DNA of 24,787 nt from a virus, in the IMG/VR virus record IMGVR_UViG_3300024326_000034, positions 1 through 24,787 of that record; one strand, 5' to 3'. Within the stretch, counting starts at the first letter, position 1; each line of letters opens with the position of its first letter. This document shows, piece by piece, positions 868 through 3,388 of the stretch. The notes under the pieces were generated by a model that searched no databases, was not told the origin of the DNA, and was given only the letters and a program-made list of their open reading frames with translations. A program made the position numbers and the translations under genes.

Positions 868-1422
868 TCAAACTTGAGGATTAATAATAGACTTCATCTC
901 GTCTTCAGATACTTCATAGTCAACTAACCTAGATACTACTGCATCTTTTTGTCCGTTCTTTACTGCTTCTAACATCTTCTTCTTGATAGCAGCCGTTAAC
1001 TTCTTCTTAGTAATAGTTTTGGTAACATTACCATGAGTGTTAGTAGCGTCTGCATCTTTAGTGTCGTCAATTAAGAACATTCCATTAAGGGCGTACTTTC
1101 TTGCGTATGAACTCGATGAACCGAAACTCTGTGCAATATCCATCCCCTTTCTGTTTGGATCAATACCTGCTTGCGCTGTTGAAGCCAACCTATCACCTTC
1201 ATACGATACCATAACAGTAGACTCAACATACATATAGTTACCAGCTTCGTGTACTTGGTCTGCAATTGTAATAAGTAATCCATGTTTAGCTAATAAAGGT
1301 TTAACTGCTTCTAAAATGTCTTCACAACTTCTGTAGTTATATTTACCGAAATTATTCCTTTGATTCTTTGGTGCTTTTAGTTCACTTTGAACCTTGAGCA
1401 ATCTTTCTTGTAGTTCTTTCAT
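868..1422 (-). CDS. ERF-family single-strand DNA annealing protein
   Basis: The protein matches the ERF recombinase family in pattern. The N-terminal part has FGKYNYRSCEDILEAVKPLL, a hallmark block, and the middle has QSFGSSSSYARKYAL followed by LIDDTKDADA. The C-terminal tail is Lys-rich. ERF proteins anneal complementary single strands and replace RecA in phage recombination. The reading frame is open to a TTG codon at 1435-1437, but the ATG at 1420-1422 (MKELQERLL) is the more likely start, giving 184 residues. The partner exonuclease gene follows directly. The upstream gap to the plus-strand peptide gene must hold the promoter of this unit, because the gene diverges from its neighbour. 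Confidence 0.9.
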   Translation of the reverse strand: MKELQERLLKVQSELKAPKNQRNNFGKYNYRSCEDILEAVKPLLAKHGLLITIADQVHEAGNYMYVESTVMVSYEGDRLASTAQAGIDPNRKGMDIAQSFGSSSSYARKYALNGMFLIDDTKDADATNTHGNVTKTITKKKLTAAIKKKMLEAVKNGQKDAVVSRLVDYEVSEDEMKSIINPQV

Positions 1423-1462
1423 GTCTCTAATATACAATTTATTTGTAATAAAGGTTACATTA

Positions 1463-1477
1463 TTAAGAAAAATGTTT
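1463..1477 (-). promoter_or_regulatory. Shared upstream motif AAACATTTTTCTTAA, copy 1
   Basis: On the minus strand this reads AAACATTTTTCTTAA and ends 40 bases before the ERF ATG. A nearly identical element (one T fewer) sits at 4002-4015 in front of the 58-aa lysis-region gene. Both lie in real intergenic gaps upstream of a minus-strand gene, so they may be a phage promoter element or operator. Two AT-rich copies are weak evidence. Confidence 0.25.
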
Positions 1478-1504
1478 TATTTAATGTTAAGTTAATATTA
1501 TAAT
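1476..1504 (+). promoter_or_regulatory. Candidate promoter for the plus-strand unit
   Basis: The divergent gap holds TTTATT (1476-1481), a 17-base spacer, and TATAAT (1499-1504), which is 24 bases upstream of the 55-aa peptide start. This looks like a sigma-70 -10 box with a poor -35. A clear Bacteroidota TAnnTTTG -7 element was not found. In such AT-rich DNA a TATAAT match is easily fortuitous. Confidence 0.25.
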
Positions 1505-1528
1505 GGTATTAAGATCGTAAAAGAAGAT

Positions 1529-1696
1529 ATGAAAATAATAATAACAGCAATAGTAATATTAATTGCAACTTCAGACAGAACTATACCTAAAAACTCTGGA
1601 CTAACAGAAGGTCACATAGAATTTTTAAAAGACCATGAAGCTTATGAAGATTTTATGGAGGCTTTTTATCCAGATTCAAGTAAAAATAGTTTGTAG
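1529..1696 (+). CDS. 55-aa putative secreted or membrane-anchored peptide
   Basis: A 55-codon frame from ATG at 1529 to TAG at 1694-1696. It begins with Met-Lys and then an uninterrupted hydrophobic stretch, residues 3-13 (IIITAIVILIA), followed by TSDRT. This resembles a signal peptide or single membrane anchor. The rest is hydrophilic and acidic (HIEFLKDHEAYEDFMEAFY). There is no lipobox cysteine. The start is preceded by A-rich sequence with AGAAG at a suitable distance. It is the only protein gene on the plus strand and shares its orientation with the tRNA and terminator that follow. A short exported phage protein expressed separately from the late genes could be a superinfection-exclusion or envelope-modifying factor, but that is inference. 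I recognise no family. Confidence 0.6.
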   Translation: MKIIITAIVILIATSDRTIPKNSGLTEGHIEFLKDHEAYEDFMEAFYPDSSKNSL

Positions 1697-1726
1697 ATTA
1701 TAAATTAATTACGATATTAGATCCAT

Positions 1727-1800
1727 GCTTCTTTAGCTCAGTTGGCTAGAGCAGTTGATTTGTAATCAACAGGTCGTAGGTTCGAGTCCTATAAGAAGCT
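1727..1800 (+). tRNA. tRNA-Thr (anticodon UGU)
   Basis: The sequence folds as a complete cloverleaf. The acceptor stem is GCTTCTT (1727-1733) with AAGAAGC (1793-1799), fully paired, with discriminator T at 1800. The D stem is GCTC/GAGC, the anticodon stem GTTGA/TCAAC, and the loop TTTGTAA with anticodon TGT at 1761-1763. The T arm is GTAGG-TTCGAGT-CCTAT with one G-T pair. CCA is not encoded, so it must be added by the host enzyme. U34 reads ACA, a common Thr codon in these AT-rich genes. The tRNA lies 30 bases after the peptide gene and is oriented against the flanking phage genes. Confidence 0.95.
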
Positions 1801-1870
1801 CTGGACGTTTTTGTCCAATTAACCATTTGATTGAGGTTAATAACACACATTGTTCTCTATAGTAAGGAAT
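1801..1870 (+). other. Two tandem stem-loops after the tRNA, possible structured RNA
   Basis: Directly after the tRNA there are two adjoining perfect inverted repeats. TGGAC (1802-1806) pairs with GTCCA (1813-1817) around a 6-base loop. ATTAACC (1818-1824) pairs with GGTTAAT (1835-1841) around a 10-base loop. Nothing codes here. With the terminator at 1871 they would form a three-hairpin 3' RNA. It may be a small RNA, a tRNA-processing leader, or simply a structured 3' end. Confidence 0.4.
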
Positions 1871-1917
1871 AGGGAGGTCTAGAAACAAATGCTTGAAGCT
1901 AGCCTCCCTTTTTCTTT
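1871..1917 (+). terminator. Intrinsic terminator of the plus-strand unit, possibly bidirectional
   Basis: AGGGAGG-T-CTAG (1871-1882) pairs with CTAG-CCTCCCT (1899-1909), leaving one bulged T, around a 16-base loop. A T-rich run TTTTTCTTTA follows on the plus strand. The T-run shows that it ends plus-strand transcription of the peptide and tRNA. The same hairpin lies just past the 3' end of the converging minus-strand late operon, where it lacks a good U-tract but may still slow read-through. Confidence 0.8.
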
Positions 1918-3121
1918 ATTTACTTCTCTTCATTTCAAAGAAAATATCAGAATGTTTAATTCTGTTACTATATTTAGGAACGATCTGTACGCTATACCCA
2001 CTATAAGTCTCACCAAAGTTATGTGATACCCATGCAGATGGTGGAGCAAAACTCATGTAGTTTCTATAATCAAACTTCTTAGTTCTCTGGTAACCTACCT
2101 GATGTAAATCTCCCTTCTCTACGTGAATGTATTTAGACTTAATATCGTAATGATCTATGTAGTCATTAATAAAGTTAATGGTACGATCATTAAGAACTAT
2201 AGGCAAACCTCTATTCATGTGTTTCTTGTCCTTACCATGCGTTAAAACAAAGCAATGATCTCCCCATTCAAAATGCTCCATAAACCTCTCCAACAGCTCA
2301 AAAGATACATTAGGCATACCTGCACAGTCAATCATGTATTGAACTGTCTTGTTAGCTATCCATCCAAAGTCTCCTGAGTGATTACAGTTAGAAACAGATC
2401 TAATAACATACTTCTTAGCTACACCAGACTCAATAATCCTTCTAATAAGGTTATATTTACCTCTAACATATACATCAAAAGCTTGTTTATTATTCATGTT
2501 TTGGTCTAGCTTGTGTCCACCTCTTGTAGTGTAACCATCCCATCCATCTAATCCATCACCTAAATCATCTAATACGAATAATTCAAACGTACCATTCTCC
2601 TTATACTCTTGTATGATACTATCATAGACAGAATCTAAGTTCTGATTGAATACTTCTTCATTGTATTCATAAGAAAATAATGAATTACCTTGTGGATTAG
2701 GATCTAAACCAACGTGAATATCGCTTAACACGACTTTTAAGGCACTTTCAAAGGCTATGTCATGTGAAACTACGTCAATAGGCTTATAATCGCTTAAAAC
2801 CTCTCTAACGGTAGATTCAATATCTTCCTGTGATAATCCTGAAACTTCATTCTCTGATACTCTAACAGAAAAGTCCTCACCATTAAACTCACTTTTATGC
2901 CAATACGCATCCACTTTAGAAGTTGGAATACCCTTAGCCTCACAGTAAGCTTCAATAGCTGAATTGTCTTGCTTATTAAGAAATCTTCTAATGTAGTTTC
3001 TGATTGCTTGAAAAGTAGAAGGATCTAAACCATTCTCGGTATAGACCATTCTAGCTATTTCAGACTTTGACTTATCCTTATTTGATAGAATAAAGTCATT
3101 ATAAATTGCCCATTTACTCAT
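1916..3121 (-). CDS. Calcineurin-like metallophosphoesterase with N-terminal HTH-like segment
   Basis: A 401-residue protein. Residues 130-340 carry the metallophosphoesterase motif series: D-x-H in LSDIHVG (D134, H136), GD in LDDLGDGLDGWDG (D189), an Asn-His pair in SNCNHSGD (N247, H248), and later His motifs LTHG (H295) and GDLH (H340). These would bind two metal ions and hydrolyse a phosphoester. The substrate (nucleic acid, nucleotide or protein) cannot be told. Residues 1-50 (KSKSEIARMVYTENG... to RNYIRRFL) look like a helix-turn-helix, pointing to a nucleic-acid-related role. It is the last gene of the late block, 6 bases after the holin candidate, and its stop overlaps the convergent terminator. 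Confidence 0.8.
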   Translation of the reverse strand: MSKWAIYNDFILSNKDKSKSEIARMVYTENGLDPSTFQAIRNYIRRFLNKQDNSAIEAYCEAKGIPTSKVDAYWHKSEFNGEDFSVRVSENEVSGLSQEDIESTVREVLSDYKPIDVVSHDIAFESALKVVLSDIHVGLDPNPQGNSLFSYEYNEEVFNQNLDSVYDSIIQEYKENGTFELFVLDDLGDGLDGWDGYTTRGGHKLDQNMNNKQAFDVYVRGKYNLIRRIIESGVAKKYVIRSVSNCNHSGDFGWIANKTVQYMIDCAGMPNVSFELLERFMEHFEWGDHCFVLTHGKDKKHMNRGLPIVLNDRTINFINDYIDHYDIKSKYIHVEKGDLHQVGYQRTKKFDYRNYMSFAPPSAWVSHNFGETYSGYSVQIVPKYSNRIKHSDIFFEMKRSK

Positions 3122-3127
3122 ACAGCC

Positions 3128-3388
3128 TTATCCTACTAAAACTTTTATTAACTTATCATAAACCTCTTGATCTATCTTTCCGAAAGAGTATGCTACCCCT
3201 GCGATGATTGATACAACAGTTGTAATAAATCCTAAAAGCCTACTGTAGTCTAGCTCACCTGCTGGAGTTTCTGTAGTGTCTGCTCTGTTAATCTTTAATG
3301 CTTTGGTTACGTGCTTGATGTCTTTAATACCTACACCGAATCTTTTAGCTACTTTTGCAGCCGCTTCTGCGAATAAAATGATTTTCAT
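3128..3388 (-). CDS. Small single-pass membrane protein, candidate holin
   Basis: An 86-residue protein with one clear hydrophobic segment at about residues 51-69 (LLGFITTVVSIIAGVAYSF), an amphipathic, Ala/Lys-rich N-terminal half, and a short charged C-terminus. It lies between the M15 peptidase gene (8 bases upstream) and the metallophosphoesterase. A small membrane protein next to the only visible peptidoglycan hydrolase is the usual setting of a holin. Holins have little conserved sequence, so the call rests on size, topology and position. An alternative is another lysis accessory protein such as an antiholin. Confidence 0.5.
   Translation of the reverse strand: MKIILFAEAAAKVAKRFGVGIKDIKHVTKALKINRADTTETPAGELDYSRLLGFITTVVSIIAGVAYSFGKIDQEVYDKLIKVLVG

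What the first reader, a model, noticed from the sequence alone, without database searches (positions are those of the whole stretch)
1476..1917. Moron-like plus-strand cassette: exported peptide, tRNA-Thr and terminator against the flow of the genome
Everything else in the window is on the minus strand. This unit is oriented the other way, with a divergent gap upstream and a strong terminator downstream. It encodes a 55-aa peptide with an N-terminal hydrophobic segment. Independent units of this kind in phages often serve the lysogen or block superinfection. The combination of a membrane peptide with a tRNA and structured RNA is not a layout I recognise.
Basis: partly seen in the sequence, partly recalled or inferred. 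Interest (0 to 1): 0.6.

Follow-up and report, generated by a model that had tools for sequence, protein, structure and literature searches.

The report
Counter-strand phage tRNA and peptide cassette
A phage of marine flavobacteria, whose other genes all run one way, carries a small plus-strand insert with a short probably exported peptide, a threonine tRNA and a terminator; close relatives lack the insert at the same spot, and the RNA after the tRNA keeps its shape in a second phage with a different tRNA.

Summary
The window is a 24.8-kb IMG/VR record of a probable flavobacterial phage with every other gene on minus. On plus lie a 55-codon ORF with coding-like codon use, a bona fide tRNA-Thr(UGU) and a terminator. 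The unit is accessory: L008 has it, while L003 and L006 lack peptide and tRNA at the same point and keep only a promoter-like motif plus terminator. "Moron-like" is fair as anatomy. "Serves the lysogen" is unsupported: no integrase or resolvase was found. The part that is not obviously ordinary is the RNA between tRNA and terminator: two abutting hairpins plus an ACACACA linker. It recurs with compensatory changes behind a different tRNA in L033, also facing the 3' end of the homologous gene, and matches no Rfam family. Best reading: a lytic-phase accessory tRNA cassette whose structured trailer aids processing (rival: acts as a small RNA), with an exported peptide as passenger. Transcription is not shown. 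Interest moderate.

The parts
1438..1528 (.). AT-rich divergent intergenic region (GC 0.165) between the ERF gene on minus and the plus-strand unit; TATAAT at 1499-1504 is a possible -10 for the plus unit
   Evidence: in four of the closest ERF relatives (L003, L004, L005, L006) the same place holds a flavobacterial-type TTTG-19-TAnnnTTG motif reading away from ERF, absent from about 70 more distant ERF loci; in the window itself the strict and relaxed motif are not found
1529..1696 (+). 55-aa ORF; N-terminus M-K-IIITAIVILIA followed by ATS/D (possible signal peptidase I site), then an acidic 40-aa tail; probable exported or membrane-anchored peptide (inference from sequence)
   Evidence: identical protein in L008 with one synonymous base; no Pfam, PHROGs, phage or genome contigs match
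1690..1720 (+). possible separate promoter of the tRNA: TTTG (1690-1693, overlapping the ORF's end), 19 nt, GATATTAG, then 6 nt to the tRNA; L033 has TTTG-18-TAAATTAG shortly before its tRNA
   Evidence: read from sequence; consensus of the flavobacterial primary sigma -7 box TAnnTTTG from PMC9723704; inference
1727..1801 (+). tRNA-Thr, anticodon UGU, no encoded CCA
   Evidence: positions 8-63 are 93-95% identical to tRNA of most sampled Flavobacteriaceae genomes, acceptor stem different
1802..1817 (+). hairpin H1, 6 pairs and 4-nt loop, directly behind the tRNA
   Evidence: all six pairs kept in L033 with three pairs changed on both sides, and A-U to G-U in L008
1818..1841 (+). hairpin H2 abutting H1, AUUAACC..GGUUAAU, 10-nt loop
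   Evidence: same stem in L033 with outer pair A-U to U-A and a 12-nt loop
1842..1860 (+). unpaired linker AACACACAUUGU.. shared with L033
1870..1914 (+). intrinsic terminator, GGGAGG..CCTCCC then T-run, abutting the stop codon of the convergent 401-aa gene
   Evidence: a plus-strand terminator lies at the same position in L003 and L006, where two stem pairs change on both sides (AA/TT to GG/CC)
868..1425 (-). flank: ERF-family ssDNA annealing protein
1916..3121 (-). flank: 401-aa phage protein matching PHROG exonuclease families; Cellulophaga phage relatives annotated calcineurin-like phosphoesterase

Best explanation
The unit is an accessory, independently terminated plus-strand cassette (moron-like in anatomy) in a probably lytic, one-directional phage of about 41 kb that infects Flavobacteriaceae. 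Its main cargo is a host-derived tRNA-Thr(UGU), made with a structured 3' trailer (H1, H2, ACACACA linker, terminator). Proposed mechanism: during infection the tRNA is transcribed against the main flow from its own or the peptide's promoter. The terminator stops that transcript from running antisense into the 401-aa gene. Processing (probably RNase Z after the discriminator, since no CCA is encoded) frees a working tRNA-Thr that supports translation of the phage's Thr-rich proteins, or replaces host tRNA-Thr lost to host damage or defence. The paired hairpins protect or position the 3' end for processing. The 55-aa peptide is a passenger gene for an exported or membrane peptide. Shown: tRNA, coding-like ORF, terminator, presence/absence, and trailer fold shared with a second phage. 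Inferred: transcription, processing, tRNA supply, peptide export, lytic lifestyle.
For: Intact tRNA by two programs, 71.5 bits; core like the Flavobacteriaceae tRNA-Thr, with a remodelled but fully paired acceptor stem, which argues for selection as a tRNA. Thr is 7.9% of window codons, and ACA/ACT are 549 of 603 Thr codons. Presence in window and L008, absence in L003 and L006 at the same point. Terminator against the convergent gene. Trailer fold shared with L033 behind another tRNA. No integrase or resolvase in six records. Precedent for phage tRNAs rescuing infection from tRNA-depleting defence: PMC11555353.
Against: A relative without the tRNA has the same Thr codon use (ACA fraction 0.448 against 0.446 and 0.428 in carriers), so codon demand alone does not explain its presence. 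The anticodon loop UUUGUAA equals that of the Tenacibaculum tRNA, so escape from an anticodon nuclease by loop mutation is not indicated. Plus-strand transcription is not shown, and the promoter match in the window is weak. L033's tRNA has an 8-nt anticodon loop and may not decode normally.
Confidence: 0.5

Rival explanations
1. The structured trailer is itself the product: after cleavage behind the tRNA, the roughly 115-nt H1-H2-linker-terminator RNA acts as a small regulatory or sponge RNA, working like E. coli 3'ETS-leuZ, with the tRNA serving as its processing handle.
For: Same order and fold behind two different tRNAs, H1 sequence replaced while pairing is kept, and a conserved single-stranded ACACACA(A)UUGU. 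The H2+ACACACA pattern has 28 other matches in IMG/VR, none beside a tRNA. Precedent for tRNA trailers pairing with small RNAs in PMC6191717.
Against: Only two independent examples. The exact complement of the linker occurs nowhere else in the window or L033, so no phage target is evident; host targets were not searched. L003 and L006 do without it.
Confidence: 0.2
2. The peptide is the selected cargo (superinfection exclusion or another envelope effect) and the tRNA is incidental.
For: Coding-like ORF with a signal-like hydrophobic N-terminus; moron-type placement and presence/absence.
Against: No homologue anywhere searched except one near-identical copy. L033 keeps tRNA and trailer without this peptide. 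No sign of lysogeny.
Confidence: 0.15
3. Neutral hitchhiker: host tRNA and DNA picked up in a recombination-prone gap and kept only until deleted; the trailer similarity reflects shared ancestry without function.
For: The gap looks recombination-prone: in L008 an HNH endonuclease gene is inserted and ERF is swapped exactly at the edge of the cassette. The Tenacibaculum tRNA-Thr is followed by a plain terminator without H1 and H2.
Against: Acceptor and T-stem pairing are intact, and H1 pairs were kept while both sides changed, which indicates selection.
Confidence: 0.15

Closest known systems
Phage morons (autonomous gene with own promoter and terminator inserted between genes of a phage)
   Same: Counter-oriented unit with terminator, present in some and absent from other close relatives at one point
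   Different: No evidence of a prophage state; carries a tRNA and a structured trailer; promoter in the window not clear
Phage-encoded tRNAs that offset host tRNA loss (PMC10264068, PMC11555353)
   Same: Bona fide host-type tRNA carried by a phage
   Different: Single tRNA-Thr rather than an array; anticodon loop not changed from the sampled host's; no defence system known to hit tRNA-Thr was identified here
tRNA 3' external transcribed spacer acting as sponge RNA (3'ETS-leuZ, E. coli; PMC6191717)
   Same: Structured RNA with terminator behind a tRNA in one transcript
   Different: Two extra abutting hairpins and no target known; in a phage; no sequence relation tested

Membership tests
Phage moron | Present in some, absent in other close relatives at the same point | tested here: met
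   window and L008 against L003 and L006
Phage moron | Own terminator | tested here: met
   1870-1914; same place in L003 and L006
Phage moron | Own promoter | tested here: inconclusive
   Clear motif at the equivalent place in four relatives, no consensus match in the window
Phage moron | Deviant base composition | tested here: inconclusive
   ORF GC 0.286 against genome 0.35, lowest 5% of windows; tRNA 0.44
Phage moron | Expression from a prophage | not testable with these tools
   No integrase or resolvase found
Phage-encoded tRNA | Complete tRNA fold with canonical 7-nt anticodon loop | tested here: met
   ARAGORN and Rfam 71.5 bits
Phage tRNA evading anticodon nucleases | Anticodon-loop change relative to host tRNA | tested here: not met
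   UUUGUAA in phage and in the Tenacibaculum tRNA-Thr
Phage tRNA for codon compensation | Cognate codon use higher in carriers than in non-carriers | tested here: not met
   ACA fraction 0.446 and 0.428 in carriers, 0.448 in the non-carrier G202; G200 lacks the region in its assembly
Superinfection-exclusion peptide | Homology to a known exclusion protein | tested here: not met
   No Pfam or PHROGs match
3'ETS-type sRNA | Stable trailer RNA pairing with a target RNA | not testable with these tools
   No exact linker complement elsewhere in the window or L033

The most novel reading that the evidence does not exclude
A previously undescribed phage RNA gene: a tRNA fused to a fixed trailer of two abutting hairpins and an ACACACA linker, which keeps its architecture while the tRNA is swapped, and which yields a functional small RNA that targets the host or protects the tRNA.
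Probability: 0.2. Interest if true: 0.55.

Novelty: new variant of a known kind. Interest (0 to 1): 0.38.

Why it matters
If the trailer is functional, a phage tRNA gene would carry a second RNA product or a dedicated maturation signal, and that could be tested directly by deleting H1 and H2. The window, L008, L003 and L006 also give a natural with/without comparison for asking what a single phage tRNA is for.

Tried and rejected
Attachment-site reading of the tRNA: rejected, because the tRNA is complete, its acceptor stem differs from the sampled host tRNAs, and no integrase or resolvase was found. Rfam at relaxed threshold for the trailer: only sub-threshold, probably chance matches besides the tRNA. 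Wide pattern scans for the trailer in IMG/VR: 30 and 31 stretches, convincing only in L008 and L033. The tRNA-linked trailer pattern in 199 Flavobacteriaceae genomes: none. Kinship of the L003 short RNA with the trailer: a 10-nt TTTGACTAAT match to L033, 99 of 2000 shuffles as good, not accepted. G204's tRNA-like gene and its downstream AATAACACA: 49 of 2000 shuffles as good, left open. Short-RNA motif scan: the further matches L132 to L134 lie in unrelated contexts. One search failed on a search-term format; on a handle format.

Full report
What is there. The window is a whole IMG/VR record of 24,787 bases. Its genes include an ERF-family annealing protein, a YqaJ/RecE-like exonuclease, an endolysin-like protein and a portal, and all substantial ORFs are on the minus strand. 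The nearest annotated relatives of the 401-aa flank are Cellulophaga phages and those of ERF are Riemerella phages, so a Flavobacteriaceae host is likely; this is inference.

Is it more than chance. The tRNA scores 71.5 bits. The ORF's codon use resembles the phage's genes: score 11.3 against -10.0 with sd 5.5 for stop-free shuffles, and the other five frames score lower. The trailer folds with z -4.85. The standard terminator scan did not list the terminator, presumably because its loop exceeds the scanner's limit; the stem and T-run are plain in the sequence and in the fold.

Presence and absence. L008 (record G201) matches the window at 99% over 1418-3200, with the same peptide and tRNA; the match then stops at the ERF start, where L008 has an HNH endonuclease gene and an ERF only 65% identical. 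L003 (G202, 41.8 kb; ERF 81%, 401-aa protein 82% identical) and L006 (ERF 69%, end of the 401-aa protein 87%) have about 150 bases in the gap with no tRNA and no peptide. What they keep is a plus-strand motif TTTG-19-TATTATTG and a terminator directly beside the 401-aa stop codon. The terminator stem differs by two compensatory pairs between L003 and L006. L004 has the same short unit beside a different gene, and L005 has a full TTTG-19-TAACTTTG motif followed by an ORF. None of about 70 more distant ERF loci has this outward motif. The flavobacterial -7 box TAnnTTTG is documented in PMC9723704. The gap thus looks like a slot with an outward promoter and a terminator whose content varies. G200, 99% identical over the part of the 401-aa gene it holds, breaks in its assembly across this gap, so its content is unknown; its two ends match window 682 and 2555, consistent with a circularly permuted genome of about 41 kb.

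The trailer. Between tRNA and terminator the RNA forms two abutting hairpins and an unpaired linker. In L033, whose 401-aa homologue is 62% identical, a different tRNA sits at the 3' end of that gene, again convergent with it, followed by the same order: hairpin of 6 pairs with 4-nt loop, hairpin of 7 pairs, linker ACACACAATTGT, terminator. The distance from the T-loop to H2 is 30 nt in both. All six H1 pairs are kept, three with changes on both sides; H2 keeps all seven, one with changes on both sides. The sequence similarity of the trailers is reached by 3 of 2000 dinucleotide shuffles. Across IMG/VR the H2+ACACACA pattern occurs in 30 stretches, of which only L008 and L033 lie by a tRNA. 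It matches no Rfam family, and the tRNA-linked pattern is absent from 199 Flavobacteriaceae genomes. Two independent examples support a conserved fold but cannot establish it firmly.

How it works. The tRNA core is that of the Flavobacteriaceae tRNA-Thr(UGU), with a different but paired acceptor stem, so it is probably a working tRNA of host origin. Thr codons are frequent, but equally so in a relative without the tRNA, and the anticodon loop is unchanged from that of the sampled Tenacibaculum tRNA, so neither simple codon demand nor loop-mutation escape is demonstrated. Supply of tRNA in hosts that lose it remains the most likely role, by precedent (PMC11555353). The trailer most likely helps 3' processing or stability; a role as a small RNA is the main rival (precedent 3'ETS-leuZ, PMC6191717). 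The peptide has a signal-like N-terminus but no relatives, and L033 keeps tRNA and trailer without it, so I treat it as a passenger gene.

Verdict. The lysogen reading is not supported. Cassette and tRNA are of known kinds; the trailer is the part worth following.

Noticed in passing
L033:6529-6604: tRNA called Val(AAC) has an 8-nt anticodon loop (GATAACAG) and an acceptor and D-arm that recall initiator tRNA; three Flavobacteriaceae genomes gave no good match. May be a non-standard or decoy tRNA.
   Followed up: partly
L216:1501-1570 (record G204): tRNA-like gene (46.7 bits) with Glu-like D-arm, anticodon arm apparently closed by a GCAA tetraloop and an altered T-loop; probably a decaying tRNA.
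   Followed up: partly
L008:5543-5998: HNH endonuclease ORF inserted exactly between the cassette and a swapped ERF gene, suggesting endonuclease-driven recombination at this gap.
   Followed up: partly
L003, L004, L006, gap upstream of ERF: Short plus-strand promoter-like motif plus terminator without an ORF, possibly a 70-80-nt RNA, with conserved GASTAATTGGGAG before the loop and compensatory stem changes.
   Followed up: partly
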